Positions 2,229 through 48,400 of a stretch of 64,000 nt of DNA are shown piece after piece. The DNA lies in NCBI GenBank assembly GCA_933228675.1, contig OW121742.1:32767034-32831033 (forward strand). The letters run 5' to 3'. Position numbers and translations under genes: made by a program. The notes under the pieces are model-generated. The model saw only the letters and a list, made by a program, of their open reading frames with translations, was not told the origin of the DNA and ran no database searches. Position 1 is the stretch's first letter. Every line of letters starts with the position of its first letter. Source of the stretch: Stomorhina lunata. Taxonomy: Eukaryota > Arthropoda > Insecta > Diptera > Rhiniidae.

Positions 2229-3970
2229 CAAGGACACAGACTTACACAAAGACTAACGCGTAGACTAAGACATAGACTAGGACATAGACCAAGACATAGA
2301 CTAAGACATAGACTAAGACATAGACTAAGACATAGACTAAGACATAGACTAAGACATAGACTAAGACATAAACTAAGACATAGACTAAGATATAGACATA
2401 GATTAAGACATAGACTAAGACATAGACTAAGACATAGACTAAGACATAGACTAAGAAATAGACTAAGATATAGACTAAGACATAGACTAAGACATAGACT
2501 AAGACATAGACTAAGACATAAACTAAGACATAGACTAAGACATAGACTAAGACATAGACTAAGACATAGACTAAGACATAGACTAAGACATAGACTAAGA
2601 CATAGACTAAGACATAGACTAAGACATAGACTAAGACATAGACTAAGACATAGACTAAGACATTGACTAAGACATAGACTAAGACATAGACTAAGACATA
2701 GACTAAGACATAGACTAAGACATAGACTAAGACATAGACTAAGACATAGACTAAGACATAGACTAAGACATAGACTAAGACATAGACTAAGACATAGACT
2801 AAGACATAGACTAAGACATAGACTAAGACATAGACTAAGACATAGACTAAGACATAGACTAAGATATAGACTAAGACATAGACTAAGACATAGACTAAGA
2901 CATAGACTAAGATATAGACTAAGACATAGACTAAGACATAGACTAAGACATAGAATAAGACATAGACTAAGACATAGACTAAGACATAGACTAAGACATA
3001 GACTAAGACATAGACTAAGACATAGACTAAGACATAGACTAAGACATAGACTAAGATATAGACTAAGACATAGACTAAGACATAGACTAAGACATAGACT
3101 AAGACATAGACTAAGACATAGAATAAGACATAGACTAAGACATAGACTAAGACATAGACTGAGACATAGAATAAGATATAGACTAAGACATAGACTAAGA
3201 CATAGACTAAGACATAGACTAAGACATAGACTAATATATAGACTAAGACATAGACTAAGACATAGACTAAGACATAGACTAAGACATAGACTAAGACATA
3301 GACTAAGACACAGACTAAGACATAGACTAAGACATAGACTAAGACATAGACTAAGACATAGACTAAGACATAGACTAAGACATAGACTAAGACATAGACT
3401 AAGACATAGACTAAGACATAGACTAAGACACAGACTAAGACATAGACTAAGACATAGACTAAGACATAGACTAAGATATATACTAAGACATAGACTAAGA
3501 CATAGACTAGGACATAGACTAAGACATAGACTAAGACATAGACTAAGACATAGACTAAGACATAGACTAAGACATAGACTAAGACATAGACTAAGACATA
3601 GACTAAGACATAGACTAAGACATAGACTAAGACATAGACTAAGACATAGACTAAGACATAGACTAAGACATAGACTAAGACATAGACTAAGACATAGACT
3701 AAGACATAGACTAAGACATAGACTAAGACATAGACTAAGACATAGACTAAGACATAGACTAAGATATAGACTAAGACATAGACTAAGACATAGACTAAGA
3801 CATAGACTAAGATATAGACTAAGACATAGACTAAGACATAGACTAAGACATAGACTAAGACATAGACTAAGACATAGACTAAGACATAGACTAAGACATA
3901 GACTAAGACATAGACTAAGACATAGACTAAGACATAGACCAAGACATAGACTAAGAGATAGACCAAGACT
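2229..3970. repeat. 12-bp tandem satellite (unit GACATAGACTAA)
   Basis: About 145 head-to-tail copies of the 12-mer GACATAGACTAA run for about 1.74 kb. The first three or four units (2229-2262) and the last two (3945-3970) are degenerate and the interior is nearly uniform. Scattered variants are AAGATATAG, AATAAGACA and ACACAG. Because 12 is divisible by 3 and two minus-strand frames lack stops, the array yields two false minus-strand frames of about 570-610 codons reading (LCLS)n and (LVYV)n. These are not genes: composition is purely periodic and both frames are open equally. Confidence 0.97.
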
Positions 3971-13295: not shown

Positions 13296-13685
13296 TTTCT
13301 ATCGTCAACTTTTCTAAAGAAAATCTTCCTATCGTCAACTTTTCTTAAGAGAAGTCTTTCTATCGTCAACTTTTCTTAAGAGAAGTCTTTCTATCGTCAA
13401 CTTTTCTTAAGAGAAGTCTTTCTATCGTCAACTTTTCTTAAAAAAAGTCTTCTTATTGTCAACTTTTCTTAAGAAAAGGGTTCCTGTTGTTTTCTTAAGA
13501 GAAGTCTACCTATCATCAATTTTTCTTAAGAAAAGACTTCCTATCGTCAACTTTTCATTAGAAAAATTTTTCTATCGTCAACTTTTCTTAAGAAGAGTCT
13601 TCCTATTGTCAACTTTTTTTTAAGAAAAGTCTTCCTATAGTCAACTTTTCTTTAGAAAAGTCTTCCTAAATTTCAACTGATCTTT
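13296..13685 (+). repeat. 31-bp satellite family B, TTAAG subtype
   Basis: About 12 units of the 31-bp repeat whose centre is TCGTCAACTTTTCTTAAG. Several units read AAGAGAAG instead of AAGAAAAG. This is a small outlier of the larger array at 15310. Confidence 0.93.
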
Positions 13686-15309: not shown

Positions 15310-17165
15310 ACGAAACGTCTTCATATCGTCAACTTTTCTATAACAAAGTCTTCTTATCATCACCTTTTCTATAGAAAAGTCTTTCTATCGTCAGCATTTC
15401 TAAAGAAAAGTCTCTCTGTCGTCAAGCTTTCTAAATAAAAGTCTTCCTATCATCAACTTTTCTAAAGAAAAGTCTTCCCATCATCAGCATTTTCTAAAAA
15501 AGTCTTCCTATCATCAACCTTTCCTAACAAAAGTCTTCCTATCGTCAACTTTTGTTAAAAAAGTGTGTCTTATCATCAACTTTTCTTAAGAAAAGTCTCC
15601 CTACGTGAAGTTTTCTCAAGAAAAGTCTTCCTGTCGTGAACTTTTCTTGAAAAAAACTTGCTATCCTGAACTTTTCTATAGAAAAGTCTTGCTTTCGTCA
15701 ACTTTTCTTAAGAAAAATCTTCATATTGTCAACTTTTTTTAAGAAAAGTCTTCATATCGTCAACTTTTCTTAAGAAAAGCTTTCCTATTGTCAACTTTTC
15801 TTAAGAAAAGTCTTCCTATCGTCAACATTTCTTAAGAAAAGTATTCATATCGTCAACTTTTCTTAAGAAAAGTCTTCCTATCGTCAACTTTTCTTAAGAA
15901 AAGTCTTCCTATCGTCAACTTTTCTTAATAAAAGTCTTCCCATCGTCAACTTTTCTTATGAAAAGTCTTCCTATCGTCAACTTTTCTTAAGAAAAGTCTT
16001 CCTATCGTCAACTTTTCTTAAGAAAAGTCTTCCTATCGTCAACTTTTCATAAGAAAAGTCTTCCTGTCGTCAACTTTTCTTAAGAAAAGTCTTCCTGTCG
16101 TCAACTTTTCTTAAGAAAAGTCTTCCTGTCGTCAACTTTTCTTAAGAAAAGTCTTCCTCTCGTCAACTTTTCTTAAGAAAAGTCTTGCTATCGTCAACTT
16201 TTCTTAAGATACGTCTTCCTATCGTCAACTTTTCTATAGAAATGTCTTCCTATCGTCAACTTTTCTTAACAAAAGTCTTCCTATCGTCAACTTTTCTTAA
16301 GAAAAGTCTTCCTATCGTCAATATTTTTTAAGAAAGATCTTCCTATCGTCAACTTTTCTATAGAAATGTCTTCCTATCGTCAACTTTTCTATAGAAATGT
16401 CTACCTATAGTCAACTTTTCTATAGAAATGTCTTCCTATCGTAAACTTTTCTATGGAAATGTCTTACTATCGTCAACTTTTCTATAGAAATGTCTTACTA
16501 TCGTCAACTTTTCTATAGAAATGTCTTCCTATCGTCAACTTTTCTATAGAAATGTCTACCTATTGTCAACTTTTCTATAGAAATGTCTTCCTGTCGTCAA
16601 CTTTTCTATAGAAATGTCTTCCTGTCGTCAACTTTTCTATAGAAATGTCTTCCTGTCGTCAACTTTTCTATAGAAATGTCTTCCTATCGTCAACTTTTCT
16701 ATAGAAATGTCTTCCTATCGTCAATTTTTCTATAGAAATGTCTTCCTATCGTCAACTTTTCTATAGAAGTGTCCTCCTATCGTCAACTTTTCTACAGAAA
16801 TGTCTTCCTATCGTCAATTTTTCTATAAAAATGTCTTCCTGTCGTCAACTTTTCTATAGAAGTGTCCTCCTATCGTCAACTTTTCTATAGAAATGTCTTC
16901 CTAACGTTAACTTTTCTATAGAAATGTCTTCCTATCGTCAACTTTTCTATAGAAATATCCTCCTATCGTCTTTTTTTCTATATAAATGTCTTCCTAACGT
17001 TAACTTTTTATAGAAATGTCATCCCAATGTCAACTTTTCTATAGAAAGGTCTTCCCATCGTCAACTTTTCTATAGAAGTGGCTTCATATCGTCAACTTTT
17101 TTTATAGAAATATCTTCTGATCGTCAACTTTTCTATAGAAATGTTTTTATGAGTATAAGTGTGGG
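15310..17165 (+). repeat. 31-bp satellite family B, subtype switch
   Basis: About 60 tandem 31-bp units. From 15310 to about 16230 most units contain the perfect 18-bp palindrome ACTTTTCTTAAGAAAAGT. From about 16220 onward most units carry TTTCTATAGAAATG in its place, a 12-bp palindrome, with a short zone of mixing at 16210-16350. The flanking CTATCGTCA and CTTC linkers are shared by both subtypes. Confidence 0.97.
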
Positions 17166-20262: not shown

Positions 20263-22600
20263 TAAATTTCTTTCTACTGCCAGTTTTTAATAGAATTATC
20301 TTCCTATTGCCTACTTTTCTAAAGAAAAACTTCATATCGTCAACTTTTTTATACGAAAGGGTTCTTATAGTCAATTTTTCTAGATGTAGGTTTTCTTCAA
20401 CTTCCTATAGTCAACTTTTCCATAGAAATGTCTTTCTATCGTCAACTTTTCTATAGAAATGTTTTCCAATCGTCAACTTTTCTATAGAAATGTCTTCCTA
20501 TCGTCAACTTTTCTATAGAAATGTCTTCCTATCGTCAACTTTTCAATAGAAATGTCTTCCTATCGTCAACTTTTCAATAGAAATGTCTTCCTATCGTCAA
20601 CTTTTCTATAGAAATGTCTTCCTATCGTCAAGTTTTCTATAGAAATGTCTTTCTATCGTCAACTTTTCTATAGAAATGTCTTCCTATCGTCAATTTTTCT
20701 ATAGAAATGTCTTCCTATCGTCAACTTTTCTATAGAAATGTCTTCCTATCGTCAACTTTTCTATAGAAATGTCTTCCTATCGTCAACTTTTCAATAGAAA
20801 TGTCTTCCTATCGTCAACTTTTCAATAGAAATGTCTTCCTATCGTCAACTTTTCTATAGAAATGTCTTCCTATAGTCAACTTTTCTTTGGAAATGTCTTC
20901 CTATCGTCAACTTTTCTATAGAAATGTCTTCCTATCGTCAACTTTTCTATAGAAATGTCTTCCTATCATCAACTTTTCTATAGAAATGTCTTCCTATCGT
21001 CAACTTTTCTATAGAAATGTCTTCCTATCGTCAACTTTTCTATATAAATGTCTTCCTATCGTCAACTTTTCTATAGAAATGTCTTCCTATCGTCAAGTTT
21101 TCTATAGAAATGTCTTTCTATCGTCAACTTTTCTATAGAAATGTCTTCCTATCGTCAATTTTTCTATAGAAATGTCTTCCTATCGTCAACTTTTCTATAG
21201 AAATGTCTTCCTATCGTCAATTTTTCTATAGAAATGTCTTCCTATAGTCAACTTTTCTTTGGAAATGTCTTCCTATCGTCAACTTTTCTATAGAAATGTC
21301 TTCCTATCATCAACTTTTCTATAGAAATGTCTTCCTATCGTCAACTTTTCTATAGAAATGTCTTCCTATCGTCAACTTTTCTATATAAATGTCTTCCTAT
21401 CGTCAACTTTTCTATAGAAATGTCTTCCTATCGTCAATTTTTCTATAGAAATGTCTTTCTATCGTCAACTTTTCTATAGAAATGTCTTCCTATCGTCAAA
21501 TTTTTCTATAGAAATGTCTTCCTATCGTCAATTTTTCTATAGAAATGTCTTCCTATCGTCAACTTTTCTATATAAATGTCTTCCTATCGTCAACTTTTCT
21601 ATAGAAATGTCTTCCTATCGTCAAGTTTTCTATAGAAATGTCTTTCTATCGTCAACTTTTCTATAGAAATGTCTTCCTATCGTCAATTTTCCTATAGAAA
21701 TGTCTTCCTATAGTCAACTTTTCTATAGAAATGTCTTCCTATCGTCAACCTTTCTATAGAAATGTCTTCCTATCGTCAACTTTTCTATAGAAATGTCTTC
21801 CTATCGTCAACTTTTCTATAGAAATGTCTTCCTATCGTCAACCTTTCTATAGAAATGTCTTCCTCTCGTCAACTTTTCTATACAAATGTCTTCCTATCGT
21901 CAACTTTTCTATAGAAATGTCTTCCTATCGTCAAGTTTTCTATAGAAATGTCTTTCTATCGTCAACTTTTCTATAGAAATGTCTTCCTATCGTCAATTTT
22001 TCTATAGAAATGTCTTCCTATCGTCAACTTTTCTATAGAAATGTCTTCCTATCGTCAACCTTTCTATAGAAATGTCTTCCTCTCGTCAACTTTTCTATAT
22101 AAATGTCTTCCTATCGTCAACTTTTCTATAGAAATGTCTTCCTATCGTCAACTTTTCTATAGAAATGTCTTTCTATCGTCAACTTTTCTATAGAAATGTC
22201 TTCCTATCGTCAATTTTTTTATAGAAATGTCTTCCTATCGTAAACTTTTCTATAGAAATGTCTTCCTATCGTCAACCTTTCTATAGAAATGTCTTCCTCT
22301 CGTCAACTTTTCTATAGAAATGTCTTCCTCTCGTCAACTTTTCTATAGAAATGTCTTCCTATCGTCAACTTTTCTACAGAAATGTCTTCCTATCGTCAAC
22401 TTTTCTATAGAAATGTCTTCCTATCGTCAACTTTTCTATAGAAATGTCTTCCTATCGTCAACTTTTCTATAGAAATGTCTTCCTATCGTCAACTTTTCTA
22501 TAGAAATGTCTTCCTGTCGTCAACTTTTCTATAGAAATGTCTTCCTATCGTCAACTTTTCTATAGAAATGTTTTCCTATCGTCAACGATAGTGTCTTGCT
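20263..22600 (+). repeat. 31-bp satellite family B, CTATAG subtype with higher-order structure
   Basis: About 74 units. Nearly all carry TTTCTATAGAAATGTCTTCC and the CTATCGTCA linker. Marked variants recur at multiples of 31 bp: the pair with TTCAATAG at 20543/20574 recurs at 20791/20822 (248 bp, 8 units), and CAAGTTTTC followed by TCTTTC occurs at 20631, 21096, 21624 and 21934 (spacings 465, 528 and 310). This shows block duplication within the array. The 71-codon frame at 21451-21666 is satellite only. Confidence 0.97.
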
Positions 22601-27453: not shown

Positions 27454-27943
<490 letters not shown>

Positions 27944-38800: not shown

Positions 38801-39463
38801 ATACAGAAAGTTTTAAAATTTATTCAGTTTATAAAAATATAAAAATTAACAATTTCAATTTTTATTAAAAAAAATTTTATTACAAAATTTTTATAGAAAG
38901 TATTTTACATTGAAAATTTAATAGAAAATTTATTTTTTTATAAAAAAATTCTCAATAAGATTTTTTTATTAAATTCTCAATGAGAAATTTAAAATTTTTA
39001 TAAAACAATTTTCAATATAAAATTTTACATTGAAAAGTTTTCTATAAGAATTTCTCTGTGGAATTTTTCTTAAAAAATTTCTCTGTGAAATTTTCTATAA
39101 AAAATTCTCATTAGGAATTTTTCTATTAAAATTTCTTATTTCTACAAAATTTTTACATTGAAAATTTTTTCTACAAAAATTTTACATTGAAAATTTTTCT
39201 ACAAAAATTTTACATTGAAAACTTTTCTACAAAAATCTTATATTGAAAAGTTTTTATTAAAATTTTACATTAAAAATTTTTCTATAAAATTTTTATTTTC
39301 ATAGTTTTTCTACTAAAATTTTACATTGATAATTTTGCTTTACAAATTTTTCAATGAAAATTTTTCTATAAAAATTATACAATGAAAGATTTCTATTAAA
39401 ACTTAATATCGAAAATTTTATATAAAAATTTTTCAATGAAAATTTTCAAAATAAAAAATTTTC
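38801..39463 (+). repeat. 28-bp satellite family C, forward with inverted units
   Basis: Units CTATAAAAATTTTACATTG plus AAAATTTTT, best at 39150-39260. Around 38930-39010 a few units read in the opposite sense (CAATGAGAAATTT). Confidence 0.88.
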
Positions 39464-39532
39464 GAAAAATTAGGTTTCATCAGGCTTGAGTTCATTTAAT
39501 TTTCAAATTATTAATTTTGAAAATTGGAAAGT
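39464..39532 (+). repeat. Left arm of perfect 69-bp inverted repeat
   Basis: Perfect reverse complement of 39634-39702, separated by a 101-bp loop that holds a hammerhead-like motif. The identity of the arms implies recent formation or gene conversion. Confidence 0.95.
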
Positions 39533-39540
39533 GGTCGAGG

Positions 39541-39599
39541 GCGCTAAGTGCTGATGACGTCCTGTGGCGAGACAGAAATTGCAATCCACTAGCCGCGTT
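39541..39599 (+). ncRNA. Hammerhead-ribozyme-like motif, copy 1
   Basis: Seen on the plus strand: CTGATGA at 39551-39557, stem II GTC(C)/(A)GAC over 39559-39573, GAAA at 39575-39578, a minimal stem III (TT GC AA), then T39585-C39586, after which cleavage would fall. Stem I pairs GCGCTAAGTG upstream with CACTAGCCGCG downstream, with bulges. This is the type I layout with very short stem III known from animal retrozymes and Penelope-like elements. Oddities: position 10.1/11.1 is C·A instead of G-C, stem II has an additional mismatch, and stem III has only a 2-nt loop. It is probably a decayed ribozyme or one needing dimeric context. It lies in the loop of the 69-bp inverted repeat. Confidence 0.6.
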
Positions 39600-39633
39600 C
39601 AAAAATAATTTTTTCAGTTTTTCTCCATAATTT

Positions 39634-39702
39634 ACTTTCCAATTTTCAAAATTAATAATTTGAAAATTAAATGAACTCAAGCCTGATGAAACCTAATTTT
39701 TC
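39634..39702 (-). repeat. Right arm of perfect 69-bp inverted repeat
   Basis: Mate of 39464-39532. The ATGAACTCAAGCCTGATG stretch here resembles ATGAACCTGAGCCCGACT in the 84-bp repeats of the element at 44771, so this arm is the genuine downstream flank of the ribozyme module and the left arm is an inverted copy (inference). Confidence 0.95.
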
Positions 39703-39719
39703 AATTAATTCTAAAGTTC

Positions 39720-42700
39720 GAATAATTAATTCCCAAATAATAAAAAATTTTCTATAAAAGTTTGACTTTAAAAATGTTTCCATAAAAATTGACATTTAAA
39801 ATTTTTCTTTAAAAATTTTGCATTGAATTTTTTTTCTTAAAATTTTATTTTGAACATTTAAAAAAAAAACATTCTCAATGAAAAATTTTTATAGAAAATT
39901 TTCAATGTGAATTGTTTTCGAAAAAAATATCAATGAGAAATTTCTTTAAAAAAAATTTTATTAAGAAATTTTTACACAAAAGTTCTAGATAAGAAATTTT
40001 TATAGGCAAATTGTCAATAAAAAATTTTTAAAGTCATGGAGAAAGTTTTATAGAAAAATTTTAGAAATTTCTATGGAAAATTTCTCAATGTAAAATTTTA
40101 ATTAAAAAACCTTAACGAGAAATTTTTATAAAAAAATTCTCAATGAGAAATTTTTAAAGAAAATGTTTCATTACGAAACTTTATTTCAAAATTTTATGAA
40201 AAATTTTAATTTTAAAATTTTTTTAGAAAAATTCTCAATATGAAATCTTAATAGAAAAATTCTCAATAAGAAATTTAAATAAAAAATTCCCAATGAGAAA
40301 TTTTTATAGAAAAAATTGCATTTCAAAATTTTTATTACAAAATTTTTTTAGAAAATTTTTCCTTATAAAATTTGTATTAAAAAATTCTCAATAAAAAATT
40401 TTAATAATTAAAATTCTCAACAAGAAGTCATTGTAGAAAAATTTTCAATGAAAAATTTTTAAAGAAAACTTCTCAATAAGAAATTTTAAAAGAAAAATTC
40501 TTAATGGGCAAACTTGCTCTTTGACTATTTATAGGAAATTTTTCCAATATTAAACATTATAGGAAATTTTTCGAAAATTGACTATTTATAAGAAATTTTT
40601 GACTTTCAAAATTTAATATTTCAAAATTTAATATTTAATATTAATAATATTTATATATTTATTCCAAAATTTAATATTTATAGGAAAATTTTCGAAAATT
40701 GACTTTTTAAAGAAAAATTTTCGAACATTGAATATTTATAGGAAAATTTTCGAAAATTGGCTATTTATAGGAATTTTTTCACAAATTGACTAATTATAGG
40801 AACTTTTTATTATAAAATTTTTCTAGAAAATTGTTCATTGTTAAATTTTAATAGAAAACTCTTTATAATAAAATTTAAAACAGAAAAAATCCATTATAAA
40901 ATTTTTTTAGAAATTTTTTGATATGATTTTTTTTATCAAATTTTTCTAGAAAATTTTCCATTAAAAAAATTTTAATAGAAAAATATTTATTATAAAATTT
41001 TTACAGAAAAAATTTCATTATAAATTTTTTTTAGAAAAATTTTCATTGTAATATTTTTATAGAAATTTTTCAATAAAAAATTTTATTAAAAAAATGTTCA
41101 TTATAAAATTTTTATAAAAAAAATCAGAATAAAATTTTAGAGAAAAGAATAAGAAATTTTTAAAGACAAATTTCCAATGAGAAATTTTTGTGGAAAAATT
41201 TTCGTTCTAAAATGTTTATGGAAAAATTTTCATTATAAATTTTTTATACAAAAATTTTTGTAGAAAAATTGTCATTATTATTTTTTATAGAAAAATTTTC
41301 ATTATGAATTTTTTATACAAAAATTTTCATTATAAAATTTTTATAAAAAAATGTTCATTAAAAAATTTTTATAGAAAAATTTGCGTTATAAAATTATTAT
41401 TATAAATTTTTTTAACTAATTTTTATTATAAAGTTTTGATAGAAAAATTTTTATTTCAAATTTTTATAGAATAATTTTCATTATAAAATTTTTATAGAAA
41501 AATTTTCATTAAAAAATTTTTATAGAAAAATTTTAATAGAAAAATTTCCATTATAAAATTTTTACAGAAAAATTTTAATTATAAAATTTTTATAGAAAAA
41601 TTTTTTATAATAAAATTGTTTGGAAAATTTTTTTATAATAAAATTTCTTGGAAAAATTTTTATTATAAAATTTTTATAGAAAAATTTTCATTATAAAATT
41701 TTTATAGAAAAATTTTCATTATAAAATTTTTATAAAAAATTTTTCTTATAATATTTGTATAAAAAACTTTTATTTTAAAATTTTTATAGAAAACTTTTCA
41801 TTATAAAATTAATTTTTATAATACAAAATTTTCAATACAAAATATTTATACAAACATTTTCATTATAAAATTTTTACAGAAAATTTAAAATTATAGAATT
41901 TTTATAGAAAATTTTCGATACAAAATTTTTACAGAAACATTTTTATTATCAAATGTTTATAAAATTTTTATAGAAAAATTTTCATTATAAATTTTTTATA
42001 GAAAAATTTTTATTATAAAATTCTTAAAGAAAAATTTTCATTATAAAATTTTAATAGAAAATTTTTCATTATAAAATTTTTGTAGAAAATATTTCATTAT
42101 TAAACTTTTATATAAAAATTTTTATTATAAAACTTTTTTAGAAAAATTTTAATTATAAAATTTTTTTTTAAGAAAAATTTTCATTATAAAACTTTTATAG
42201 ATAAGTTTTCATTATAAAATATTCATAAAAAAATTGTCATTATAAAATTTTTCAATAAAAAATTTCATTATACATTTTTTTTACAGAAAATTCTCCATTA
42301 TAAAATTTTTTCAGAAAAATTTTAATTATAAAATTTTATAGAAAATTTTTTTATAATAAAATTTTTTGGAAAAATTTTTATAGAAAAATTTTCATTATAA
42401 AATTTTTGTAGAAAAATTTTTATTATAAAATTTTTATTCAAGAATTTCCATTATAAAATTTTTATAGAAAATTTTCATAATAACATTTTTTGCAAATATT
42501 TTTCATTTTAAAATTTTTTTTTCGAAAAATTTTCATTATTAAATGTTTATAGAAAAACTTTCATTTAAAATCTTAATTGAAAAATTTTTATAGAATTATT
42601 TTAATTATAAAAATTAAAAAAAAAATTTCATTATAAATTTTTTATAGAAAAATTTTCATTATAAAATTTTTATAGAAAAATCTTCATTATAAAATTTTGA

Positions 42701-44385: not shown

Positions 44386-44770
44386 AGTAATAAAAGACTT
44401 GTACCTTATAAATTTGTTGAAATTTTTCTATACAAATTTGGTATTGAAACTTTTTTATAAAAATTTTACATTGATAAATTTTCTGTGAAAAGTTTGCTTT
44501 AAGTATTTAAAAAAAAAAAATTTCACTAAAATTTTTCTATAAAAATTTTATATTAAAAATTTTTTTATACAAATTTTATATTAAAATGTTTGCTTTAAAA
44601 ACTTTGCTGTCGAAATTTTACTTTGAAAAATTTTCTATAAAATATTTAATATTTTATTTTATTTAAAAAGAAATATTTCGTACAAGCTTTTCTGCCAAAA
44701 TTATTATATGAACATTTTTCTATAAAAATTTTTCTTTAAAAATTTTTCTATAAAAATTTTTCTATAAAAA
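44386..44770 (+). repeat. 28-bp satellite family C, forward
   Basis: Units of TATAAAAATTTTACATTGA type and TTTTTCTATAAAAA, interrupted at 44771 by the ribozyme-bearing element and resuming at 45415. Confidence 0.88.
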
Positions 44771-44854
44771 TAATTTATGACATGAACCTGAGCCCGACTC
44801 GAACCCACGACCATCAACATAAATTCTGGTTCAACTAAAATTAATTTCTTTCAA
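44771..44854 (+). repeat. 84-bp direct repeat, copy 1
   Basis: Begins TAATTTATGACATGAACCTG and ends CTTTCAA. It is preceded by satellite and followed by unique sequence of the element. Confidence 0.93.
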
Positions 44855-45200
44855 TTAAATTGCATGGGCACCGCGATTTACATGTTTTCATTAACTCTTT
44901 CAAGTTGATACTAAATTCAAATTTGCATTAACGTAAAAGAATAAACAGAAACTTGTCAAAACAAAAATCTTTGTCTTCATTACCAGCTGATAGTTGGTTA
45001 AAGTTCAAAGTAAATGTAGATTAATAAAGGATAGGAATACAAAACATAAAGGAAAAAACTATGGTGGATAAGTTCGTCTAACTGAATCGATCATATGGTC
45101 ATAGGTGAAATAGAAATAATTGTTAATATAATTCTCGTTTTCCATTTCGCTTAAGAATTCAGTTAAATAGATGATCTTAACTACTGGCATCTAACAGTTG

Positions 45201-45269
45201 GTGACACAGTGTGCTGATGAAGTCCGTAGCGGGACAGAAAATGCAGCATTCCACACTGCTAAGTGTCAC
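45201..45269 (+). ncRNA. Hammerhead-ribozyme-like motif, copy 2 (better preserved)
   Basis: Core: CTGATGA 45214-45220; stem II GTCC (45222-45225) with GGAC (45232-45235); GAAA 45237-45240; stem III ATG/CAT with CAG loop (45241-45249); T45250-C45251, giving a predicted cleavage between 45251 and 45252. Stem I: AGTGTG (45208-45213) with CACACT (45252-45257), then an unpaired GCTAA, then GTGACAC (45201-45207) with GTGTCAC (45263-45269). An internal loop in stem I is exactly where natural type I hammerheads place the partner of loop II. The one departure from the core is A·A at 10.1/11.1 in place of G-C. The motif is on the plus strand and its base pairing is too extensive to expect by chance in this AT-rich context. 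Confidence 0.7.
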
Positions 45270-45330
45270 ATAGTTTTTTCAGTATTCCTAAAATTTATTC
45301 ATCTAATTTAAAAATCATAAATTAAAAAAA

Positions 45331-45414
45331 TAATCTATGACATGAACCTGAGCCCGACTCGAACCCACGACCATCAACATAAATTCTGGTTCAACTAAAA
45401 TTAATTTCTTTCAA
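45331..45414 (+). repeat. 84-bp direct repeat, copy 2
   Basis: Second copy, 62 bp downstream of the ribozyme-like motif. Satellite resumes immediately after it. Confidence 0.93.
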
Positions 45415-48400
45415 AAATTTTGCTTTAAAAATTTTTCTATAAAAATTTTAAATTGAAAATTTTTCAAAAAAAAAAATTCACTATTGGAATTTCATAAAAT
45501 TTTACTATTGAAAATTTTTCTATAAAAATCATACATTGTAAATTTTACGTTGAAAACATTCAAGAATTTATTTTTTGTTTTTATTTTTTTTTTAATTTTA
45601 TATGAACATTTTTCTATAAAAATTTTTCTTTAAAAATTTTTCTATAAAAATTTTTCTTTAAAAATTTTTCTATAAAAATTTAAAATTGAAAATTTTTCAA
45701 AAAAAAAAATTCACTATTGGAATTTCATAAAATATTTTACTTTGAAAAATTTTCTTTAAATATTCTACGTTGACAAATTTTCCATAAAAATTTTACTCTT
45801 ATAGAAATTTTACCTTGGAAAATTTTGTATAAAAATGTTTAATAGAAATTTTTCACTGAAAATTTTTATAGAGAAATATAACATTAAAAATTATTCTAAA
45901 GAAATTTTAAATGGCAATCAACATAAATTTCGCATCGTAAATTTTTCTATAAAAATTCTGTATTGAAAATTTTATTATAGAAATTTTACATTAAAAATGT
46001 TTCTATAGAAATTTAATATAGAAAACTTACATTTAGAAGTTTTCTTTAAAAATTTTATATTGAAAATTTTTCTATAGAAATTTTATATATAAATTTTACA
46101 TTCAAAATTGTTCTATAAAAATTTTACACTAAAAATTTTTTTATAAAAATTTTACATTCTAAATTTTTCCATAAAATTTTTCTATAAAAATTTTACATTA
46201 AAAATTTTAAATTAAAAAATTTTTCTCTAAAAATTTTATATTGACAATTTTTCTATAAATATTTTATAATGAAAATTTGTTCACAAAAATTTTACATTGT
46301 AATTCTTTAATAGAATTTTCACATCAAACATTTTTTATTGAAAGTTTATTCTATAAAAATTTATTTATGAAATTTTTTTTTTTTAATTTTAAATTTTTCT
46401 ATAAAAAATTAACATTGAAAATTTTTTATTAGATTTTTACATTTTTTTTTTAAATTTTGCACTGAAATTTTTTCTATAAAAATTTTACATTAAAAGTATC
46501 TTTATAAAAAAAGTAAAAATTTTACATTTAAATATTTCCTTTGGAAATTTTACGTTAAAAATTGAAAATTTTCATATATTTAAAATTTTTCTGTAAAAAG
46601 ATATCATTGAAAATCTTTTCTACAAAATTTTATATCTTAAAATAAAAATTTTATAACGAATAATTTTCTACACAAATTTTATAAGAAAATTTTACTTTGA
46701 ATTTTTTTATAAATAATTTTTCTATAAAAACTTTACATCGAAAATGCTTCTTTAAAAAATGTACATAAATAAATCGTGAATTTTTCTATAGAAATTTTGT
46801 ATTCAAAATTTTTTTATAGAAATTTGATATTGAAAATTTGAATTCAAAACTTTTCAACAAAAATTTTTCTATAAAATATTTAACTGAAAATTTTTCTATC
46901 AAAATAAATATTACATTGAAAATTTTTTTATAAAAATTTTACATTGAATATATTTTTATAAAAATTTTACATTTCTATAAAAGTTTTACATTGAAAATTT
47001 TTCTATAAAAATTTTGGATTGAAAACTTTTCTATAAAAATTTTATATTGAAAATTTTTCTATAAAAATTTTACATTGAAAACTTTTTATAAAAATTTTAT
47101 ATTGAAAATTTTTCTATAAAAATTTTATATTGAAAATTTTTCTATAAAAATTTTATATTGAAAATTTTTCTATAAAAATTTTATATTGAAAATTTTTATA
47201 AAATTTTTTTAAATTAAAAATTTTTCTATAAAAATTTTAAATTGAAAACTTTTCTATAAAAATTTTATATTGAAAATTTTTCTATAAAAATTTTTCATTA
47301 ATAATTTTTCTATAAAAATTTTTCTATAAAAATTTTTCATTAAAAATTTTTCTATAAAAATTTTTTATTAAAAATTTTTCTATAAAAGTTTATATTAAAA
47401 ATTTTTCTAAAATTATTTTTTATTGAAAATTTTTTATAAAAATTTTACATTCAAAAATTTTCTATAAAAATTTTGAAGTGAAAACTTTTCTATAAAAATT
47501 TTGTGTTGAAAATTTTTCTATAAAAATTTTAAATTGAAAACTTTTCTATAAAAATTTTATATTGAAAATTTTTCTAAAATTATTTTATATTGAAAATTTT
47601 TCTAAAATTATTTTATATTGAAAATTTTTCTATAAAAATTTAACATTGAAAAATTTTGTGTTGAAAATTTTTTCATAAAAAGTTTACATTGAAAGTTTTT
47701 TCTATGAAAATGTAAATTAAACAATTTTTCTTTACAAATTTTACATTAAAAGTTTTTCAATAAAAATTTTACATTGAAATTTTTTTTATAAAAATTTTAC
47801 ACTTAAACGTTTTCTGTAAAAATTTTACATATACATTTTTTTCTACAAATATGTTATTTTGAAAATTTTTCTCCAAAAAAATTTATATTGATAATTGTTT
47901 CTTTAAAAATTGTATATTGGAAATTTATCTATAAAGATTAACATTGAAAGTTTTTATAGAAAATGTATTTTTTTTTTAACTTTTCTATAAAAATTTTTAA
48001 CATAGAAAATTTTCCTAAAAAAAATTTACATTGAAAAATTTTCTTTAAAATTTTACATTGAAAATTTTTCTACAAAAATTTAACATTGAACAATTTTTTA
48101 AATTTTTTAATTTACAGCAAAAGTTTTCTGTAAAAATTTTGTATAGGAGATTTTTCTTCAAAATTTTCTTATAAAAATTTCACATCGAAAAATTTTCTGT
48201 AGAAATTGTATATTAAAAGGATTTTCTATATAAATTTTATATTGAAAATTTTCCTTAAAATTTTATATTAAATATTTTCCTACAAAAATTTTACATTGAA
48301 AAATTTTCTATTAAAATTTTGAATTGAAAAATTTTCTATAAAAATTTTGAATTGAAAAATTTTCTATAAAAATTTTGAATTCAACATTTTTCTGTAAAAA

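What the first reader, a model, noticed from the sequence alone, without database searches (positions are those of the whole stretch)
45201..45269. Hammerhead-ribozyme-like fold with predicted cleavage at 45251/45252
All parts of a type I hammerhead occur in the right order: stem I with an internal loop, CTGATGA, stem II (GTCC/GGAC), GAAA, a 3-bp stem III, and TC before the cleavage point. Stem I has 13 pairs around an unpaired GCTAA, where natural hammerheads dock with loop II. The only core deviation is A·A in place of the G-C pair closing stem II. This is G+C-richer than anything around it and sits in AT satellite. A self-cleaving RNA in a fly satellite region would be a notable find.
Basis: partly seen in the sequence, partly recalled or inferred. 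Interest (0 to 1): 0.87.

Follow-up and report, generated by a model that had tools for sequence, protein, structure and literature searches.

The report
Hammerhead ribozyme in Penelope-type mobile repeats
The sequence is one copy of a small motif shaped like an RNA-cutting hammerhead ribozyme that recurs thousands of times in this genome inside short non-coding jumping elements, whose scars suggest that they were copied from RNA circles by machinery like that of Penelope retrotransposons.

Summary
The hammerhead-like motif at 45201-45269 is real, base for base as described. It is not an isolated decayed fold. Its core occurs 2,986 times in this genome (control 0), 2,909 times through the cleavage site. 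The copies read fall in two non-coding families: A (563-bp unit, this copy) and B (463-bp unit, second window copy at 39551). The stem-II closing deviation is the normal state of both, not decay. Rfam misses them.

Insertions show Penelope-type anatomy in a sample chosen for an intact core. All 27 two-half elements are head-to-head. 3' ends cluster at two sites, one short and one long in 19 of 21 classifiable pairs. 20 of 27 have flanking repeats of 10-14 bp. The genome gives 150 Penelope-type endonuclease matches, 11 in frames of 830-864 aa; 6 of 11 such 3' flanks hold a hammerhead-like motif.

Laps and halves of one insertion are near-identical (0.4% against 2-3% between insertions), with no mixed variants at sites covered four or more times, as one circular template predicts. 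Best reading: non-autonomous retrozymes moved by Penelope machinery. Cleavage, circles and the helper family are not shown.

The parts
44766..45419 (+). Family A element, single-handed copy: 1.17 units (unit positions 77 to 173), 97.1% identical to the A unit used as query
   Evidence: BLAST against 8x A unit; direct repeat 44763-44863 / 45323-45423, 94% identical, 560 apart
45201..45269 (+). Type I hammerhead-like motif, family A
   Evidence: sequence; 2,909 genome matches of core plus cleavage site in families A and B together, control 0
45201..45213 (+). stem I 5' strand (outer 7 + inner 6 pairs)
   Evidence: sequence
45214..45220 (+). CTGATGA core (C3-A9)
   Evidence: sequence; same in A and B
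45221..45221 (+). extra/mismatched A on the 5' side between core and stem II (C in family B)
   Evidence: the six Penelope-flank motifs also have one extra base here (read)
45222..45235 (+). stem II GTCC/GGAC with loop GTAGCG
   Evidence: sequence; stem the same in the A and B consensus, loop differs; in the window's B copy one stem base differs
45236..45236 (+). extra/mismatched A on the 3' side of stem II, before GAAA
   Evidence: present in A and B, absent from the six Penelope-flank motifs
45237..45240 (+). GAAA core (G12-A15.1)
   Evidence: sequence
45241..45249 (+). short stem III ATG-CAG-CAT, nearly self-complementary
   Evidence: A dimer fold shares it between two molecules; energy gain not above shuffles
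45250..45252 (+). U16.1 and C17, predicted cleavage between 45251 and 45252
   Evidence: hammerhead rule (recalled numbering); cleavage not assayed
45252..45269 (+). stem I 3' strand with bulge GCTAA (45258-45262)
   Evidence: sequence
45323..45423 (+). second copy of the 101-bp repeat; holds the family A 3'-end sites and a tRNA B-box-like string on the opposite strand
   Evidence: 3'-end clusters at unit 128-139 and 162-173; ARAGORN finds no tRNA
39464..39746 (.). Family B element in head-to-head form: minus half 39464-39532 (unit 48-117, short end), plus half 39516-39746 (unit 393-161, long end)
39551..39590 (+). Family B hammerhead-like core: CTGATGA, extra C, GTCC...GAC, A, GAAA, TTGCAA, TC | CACT; predicted cleavage 39586/39587
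39450..39463 (+). left copy of a 14-bp flanking direct repeat, read as target-site duplication of the B element
39739..39752 (+). right copy of that 14-bp repeat (overlaps the element's 3' edge)

Best explanation
The motif is the hammerhead ribozyme of a non-autonomous, non-coding retroelement of the retrozyme kind (families A and B). Proposed cycle: transcripts of tandem units cut themselves at the hammerhead, probably best as dimers because stem III is very short (inferred). Unit-length RNA is closed into a circle, presumably by a host RNA ligase (inferred from published retrozymes). A Penelope-type reverse transcriptase/endonuclease nicks AT-rich DNA and starts copying inside the RNA, about 115-175 nt downstream of the cleavage site, from both DNA ends (the end positions are shown; the enzyme is inferred). 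Copying runs round the circle, up to 4.6 laps, and the two cDNAs join head-to-head between short target-site duplications (result shown, process inferred).
For: Copy number 2,986 and 2,909, controls 0. In 52 mapped elements (79 segments), all 27 two-half elements are head-to-head, none tail-to-tail. 3' ends fall in two narrow zones for 28 of 32 A and 38 of 47 B segments, 5' ends for 1 of 32 and 1 of 47; zones drawn after seeing the data. One short and one long end in 19 of 21 pairs with both ends classifiable (6 of 27 not), random pairing P about 2.4e-4. Best flank match 10.7 bp on average against 6.3 for mispaired flanks; 20 of 27 are 10-14 bp; 100-bp flanks of all 52 are 82% AT. Same anatomy published for Penelope: inverted pLTRs, ~31-bp tail on one of them, 8-10 bp TSDs (PMC3846280, passages); AT-rich cutting, both strands extended, internal start (PMC11167929, passages). 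Penelope-type endonuclease: 150 matches (150 of 206 candidates were scored), 11 in frames of 830-864 aa; hammerhead-like motif in 6 of 11 3' flanks. Laps and halves: 0.42% (A) and 0.39% (B) divergence within an element, 2.2% and 3.3% between. At 2,186 sites with four or more copies, variants are in all copies 14 times, in one 13 times, mixed 0; at 2,054 sites with three copies 17 all, 20 one, 3 two-of-three. A and B share the 3' module: score 95, null 58.4, sd 7.6, max 85.5 of 300.
Against: No Rfam hammerhead hit at any copy tested; the genome-wide RF00163 search was empty too (73 of 59,897 candidates scored) but rang in none of 14 control genomes, so it shows nothing. The monomer MFE fold is not the hammerhead for A or B. 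The A dimer folds as a double hammerhead but its gain is ordinary (67 of 100 shuffles equal or better); the B dimer does not fold so. A changed 10.1/11.1 step is expected to slow cleavage (PMC3088659, section 8). No significant DNA similarity links A or B to six Penelope 3' regions (12 comparisons, best z 2.0, 14 of 300 shuffles). In vitro a Penelope inserted without hammerhead cleavage, and no reads ended at its cleavage site (PMC11167929). Counter-cases: the halves of L056 differ at 12 of 276 sites with no shared variant, those of L022 at 10 of 105; L042 and L056 have two long ends; four two-half elements have flank repeats of 4 bp or less. Loci were picked by an intact core, so core conservation inside them is not independent evidence.
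Confidence: 0.7

Rival explanations
1. Same elements and same Penelope-type machinery, but the template is a linear multimer read-through RNA; the hammerhead is weak or dead and circles play no part.
For: A published Penelope used unprocessed RNA in vitro, and hammerhead mutants did not block insertion (PMC11167929, passages). Penelopes form tandems anyway. The fixed A.A / C.A deviation may weaken cleavage.
Against: At 2,186 sites with four or more copies in an element no variant is shared by some but not all copies beyond single-copy variants; 3 of 2,054 three-copy sites show two of three. A multimer copied from an aged array should pass on mixed variants. A young, still uniform source array, or homogenisation by gene conversion, would look the same, so this rival is weakened, not excluded.
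Confidence: 0.3
2. Foldback-type DNA transposon whose inverted repeats grew by DNA-level tandem duplication; the hammerhead is a passenger.
For: Palindromic arrays with tandem subrepeats and flanking repeats resemble foldback elements in outline (Tetris and Galileo, search listing only). In family B 5' ends are not uniform (KS p 0.0008), which picking loci by the core may explain.
Against: 5' ends of family A are spread over the unit (KS p 0.39) while 3' ends cluster; short/long end rule; 25 of 52 elements are single-handed as mapped, though some may have lost or diverged halves.
Confidence: 0.05
3. Solo pLTRs of an autonomous Penelope in this genome rather than a separate non-autonomous family.
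For: Hammerhead-like motif and 3'-end layout resemble Penelope pLTRs; Penelope-type endonucleases are present.
Against: Neither unit is found in the 11 Penelope 3' flanks read (about 1 kb each; only 23- and 45-nt matches). A and B matches outnumber endonuclease matches about 20 to 1, but the latter count is a lower bound. Most Penelope copies were not read.
Confidence: 0.15
4. Chance hammerhead-like fold in AT-rich DNA.
For: Energy z-score of the 91-nt stretch is -0.58; Rfam silent.
Against: 2,986 matches in two divergent families, 0 controls.
Confidence: 0.01

Closest known systems
Metazoan (non-LTR) retrozymes, Cervera and de la Pena 2020 (PMC7229834; abstract, passages and Discussion seen)
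   Same: Non-coding tandem units of a few hundred bp with a type I hammerhead, low GC, longer TSDs; proposed circRNA template; Penelope named there as likely helper
   Different: Units of 463 and 563 bp against 150-450 bp repeats cited there; head-to-head insertions with a short and a long end; an extra base on each side of stem II; expression and circles not tested here
Penelope-like elements (PLE) with pLTR hammerheads (PMC11167929, PMC3846280; passages seen)
   Same: Head-to-head inverted units, tail on one side, TSD, AT-rich target, internal RT start near a hammerhead; extra base between A9 and stem II shared with the six Penelope-flank motifs of this genome
   Different: A and B units are too short for the ORF; second extra A before GAAA; no significant DNA similarity to the Penelope flanks read here
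Newt/salamander satellite hammerheads (as cited in PMC7229834 and PMC6155905; passages seen)
   Same: Very short stem III, tandem repeats; dimer activity reported there
   Different: Insertion anatomy and core deviation; newt repeats not compared by sequence here
Type I hammerhead with U10.1-U11.1 mismatch (PMC3088659, section 8 read)
   Same: Natural mismatch at the first stem II step
   Different: There U.U; here A.A and C.A (or one inserted base per side) as the normal state of two families

Membership tests
Type I hammerhead ribozyme | CUGANGA, GAAA, NUH in order around three stems, stem I open | tested here: met
Type I hammerhead ribozyme | G10.1-C11.1 pair next to the core | tested here: not met
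   A.A in A, C.A in B; if read as one inserted base per side, G-C is the next pair
Type I hammerhead ribozyme | covariance-model match | tested here: not met
Type I hammerhead ribozyme | compensatory change in stems | tested here: inconclusive
   Of 11 inner pairs that form in both families (hand-aligned), two differ on both sides (1.4/2.4 and 15.2/16.2). Pairs formed in A only (outer stem I, 15.4/16.4) were left out, so compensation among the 11 is partly by construction; two changes are modest evidence
Type I hammerhead ribozyme | self-cleavage | not testable with these tools
   needs in vitro assay
Metazoan retrozyme | non-coding tandem units with HHR, dimers to multimers | tested here: met
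   28 of 79 segments exceed one unit, 9 exceed two, largest 4.62
Metazoan retrozyme | expressed as unit-length linear and circular RNA | not testable with these tools
   no RNA data
Metazoan retrozyme | no LTR, PBS or PPT; low GC | tested here: inconclusive
   LTR, PBS and PPT were not searched for as such
Penelope-like element | RT plus GIY-YIG ORF | tested here: not met
   units of 463 and 563 nt cannot hold an ~830-aa ORF. Of the 60 longest frames listed near copies, the 5 scanned with Pfam gave no RT or GIY-YIG
Penelope-type insertion anatomy | head-to-head halves, tail on one half, TSD, AT-rich site | tested here: met
   27 of 52 elements have two halves, 19 of 21 classifiable pairs one tail

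The most novel reading that the evidence does not exclude
Each head-to-head insertion records one retrotransposition in which Penelope-type machinery twin-primed a single self-made RNA circle at two start sites about 40 nt apart and copied it by rolling circle from both DNA ends, with a hammerhead whose core has an extra base on each side of stem II as its normal state. This would be genomic evidence for the proposed circRNA intermediate and for the helper of animal retrozymes.
Probability: 0.45. Interest if true: 0.85.

Novelty: new variant of a known kind. Interest (0 to 1): 0.72.

Why it matters
How animal retrozymes move has been a proposal: circles as templates, Penelope as a strong candidate helper (PMC7229834, Discussion, read). 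The insertion scars here carry signs of both, in families with thousands of copies, so the proposal becomes testable by typing all copies and by RNA-seq. The fixed double insertion beside stem II asks whether a hammerhead can work without the usual 10.1-11.1 pair, and copies were invisible to Rfam in every scan run here. In the listings (capped, open-licence papers only) I saw no title or abstract on such elements in a fly or on one-circle evidence from insertion structure; two directly relevant papers were not held.

Tried and rejected
Rejected: chance fold; tRNA gene (ARAGORN none); known Rfam family; foldback DNA transposon (see rivals). The genome-wide RF00163 search is uninformative, its controls were silent too. 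DNA search with the hammerhead as query gave no candidates, and the tool warns that it skips common words. Sequence homology between A/B and Penelope 3' regions was sought and not shown. The 680-aa frame between two B arrays in L044 was first suspected to belong to the element; it matches a Transib transposase. Two core-less fragments seemed to start at the cleavage site; on reading, L012 starts about 10 nt inside and L049 is ambiguous. The test for an excess of copies starting exactly at the cleavage site did not complete. MAFFT did not align stem III of A and B, so the stem comparison is by hand. No covariance model was built.

Full report
Observation. The motif is exactly as described: 13 stem I pairs around the bulge GCTAA, CTGATGA, GTCC/GGAC, GAAA, ATG/CAT and TC before the predicted cut at 45251/45252. 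A second copy stands at 39551. Rfam release 15 gives no hammerhead hit in the window at gathering scores, nor around either copy at E<=10, nor in eight loci that hold many intact copies at gathering scores, nor at one intact A copy at E<=10. No positive control was run.

Copies. The core pattern occurs 1,509 + 1,477 = 2,986 times in the 728-Mb assembly, with 0 for the reversed pattern. Through the cleavage site it is 1,461 + 1,448 = 2,909, control 0. Only the first ~100 places are listed in each; those fall in two families. A (loop GTAGCG, A.A beside stem II) has a 563-bp unit and B (loop TGTGGCG, C.A) a 463-bp unit. In 40 distinct-context copies the pair is C.A 26, A.A 13, T.A 1. The loci were fetched with A required on the 3' side, so only the 5' base is a free count. 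A canonical pattern (CTGATGAG...CGAAA...TC) finds 73 matches against 20 control matches, some of them overlapping; none that I read in the list is an A or B copy, but a recurrent third motif with stem II GATGG/CCATC and CGCG in stem III appears.

Structure. Of 11 inner pairs that form in both A and B, nine are the same and two differ on both sides (1.4/2.4 and 15.2/16.2; hand alignment). Pairs that form in A only were left out, so this is modest evidence. For an isolated copy the minimum-energy fold is not the hammerhead. Two A copies fold together as a double hammerhead with a shared stem III at -53.0 kcal/mol, but the gain over monomers is ordinary (67 of 100 shuffles reach it), and B does not do this. 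Dimer activity is inferred from the short stem III and from published cases (PMC7229834 and PMC6155905, passages). That 10.1-11.1 is nearly invariant, with a natural U.U exception, follows PMC3088659, section 8.

Elements. I mapped units in the 56 loci then held plus the window: 79 segments in 52 elements, A 21 and B 31, after dropping edge-cut, short, overlapping and duplicate segments. L017 and L019 flank one Transib insertion and are probably one array. Twenty-seven elements have two halves, all head-to-head (A 11, B 16); 25 are single-handed as mapped, including the window's A copy. Numbering the unit from the cleavage site, 3' ends fall at A ~128-139 and ~162-173, B ~115-129 and ~154-161 (28 of 32 and 38 of 47), while 5' ends hit those zones 1 of 32 and 1 of 47 times; the zones were drawn after seeing the ends. 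Outside are four A ends (10, 84, 121, 156) and nine B ends (3-100 four, 324-457 five). Of 21 two-half elements with both ends classifiable (A zones slightly widened for this), 19 have one short and one long end: A 8 of 10, B 11 of 11; six more could not be classified. Random pairing gives a mean of 10.7 and P about 2.4e-4. Direct repeats at the outer flanks average 10.7 bp against 6.3 for mispaired flanks; 20 of 27 are 10-14 bp, some in non-simple sequence (L011, L025, L027, L035, L048), and four (L007, L045, L047, L056) are 4 bp or less. Because the flanks are AT-rich, part of each length is chance. The window's B element has a 14-bp repeat.

One template. Laps and halves of one element differ at 0.42% (A) and 0.39% (B) of sites, different elements at 2.2% and 3.3%; counter-cases are L056 (halves differ at 12 of 276 sites) and L022 (10 of 105). 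At 2,186 sites with four or more copies in an element, variants from consensus are in all copies 14 times, in one copy 13 times, and mixed 0 times; at 2,054 sites with three copies 17, 20, and 3 in two of three. The simplest source is one unit copied repeatedly, that is a circle; a young uniform linear array or gene conversion is not excluded.

Helper. A GIY-YIG search found two places: an SLX1-like frame and one Penelope-like endonuclease fragment, L061, with a 135-nt inverted-junction palindrome (92%) and an AT-rich 3' flank (the SLX1 and Penelope names are my reading, Pfam says GIY-YIG). That 143-aa query gives 150 matches (150 of 206 candidates scored; some rows are pieces of one copy), 11 in open frames of 830-864 aa, with several minus/plus neighbours; the RT domain was not examined. 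Six of 11 3' flanks read (ten picked from different identity bands, plus L061) contain a hammerhead-like motif by a 4-pair stem I descriptor, with no shuffle control; each has one extra base between A9 and stem II; L061, L062 and L063 are close relatives. A and B have that extra base plus a second one before GAAA. Similarity of the A or B 3' module to those flanks is not significant (12 comparisons, best z 2.0), so the helper family is not identified. A and B share their 3' module (score 95, null 58.4, sd 7.6).

Comparison. Head-to-head pLTRs, a ~31-bp tail on one inverted pLTR and 8-10 bp TSDs are described for Penelope elements (PMC3846280, passages). A purified Penelope protein cuts AT-rich DNA, extends both strands and starts inside the RNA, but works without hammerhead cleavage in vitro (PMC11167929, passages). 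Retrozymes as circle-templated, possibly Penelope-mobilised elements are proposed in PMC7229834 (abstract, passages, Discussion). What is added here is a variant core, two large families, and insertion scars that carry the marks of both proposals at once.

Verdict. Hammerhead-bearing mobile elements, a new variant of a known kind. Shown: sequence, copy number, insertion anatomy in the sample, within-insertion uniformity, Penelope-type endonuclease frames. Inferred: cleavage, circularisation, rolling-circle copying, Penelope as helper.

Noticed in passing
L044:2371-7899 (G000:C1, ~4.660-4.666 Mb): A ~5.5-kb DNA transposon with an open 680-aa frame matching the Transib (RAG1-like) transposase 6pqn (E 1e-89) sits in loop II of a B hammerhead, with what reads as a 5-bp duplication TGGCG.
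   Followed up: partly
G000:C10:96365833, C10:102051965, C1:96265914 and about two dozen listed matches in all (L057-L059): A third hammerhead-like motif with canonical G10.1-C11.1 (stem II GATGG/CCATC, CGCG in stem III) in another dispersed repeat.
   Followed up: partly
window 44788-44806 and 45348-45366: tRNA B-box-like string (minus strand GGGTTCGAGTC) in the family A unit, close to its 3'-end sites; no tRNA called.
   Followed up: partly
window 13299-13668, 15312-17141, 20401-22586: 31-bp tandem arrays with units like CTTCCTATCGTCAACTTTTCTATAGAAATGT, distinct from the AT-rich 14/28/30-bp arrays.
   Followed up: no
window 2233-3969 and 27455-27936: 12-bp array GACATAGACTAA (145 copies, 95% matches) and a TGTC tetranucleotide array.
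   Followed up: no
G000:C11:74117354-74125413: Penelope-type endonuclease matches spaced 2,977 bp in tandem, two of them in 846-aa open frames, next to an inverted copy.
   Followed up: no
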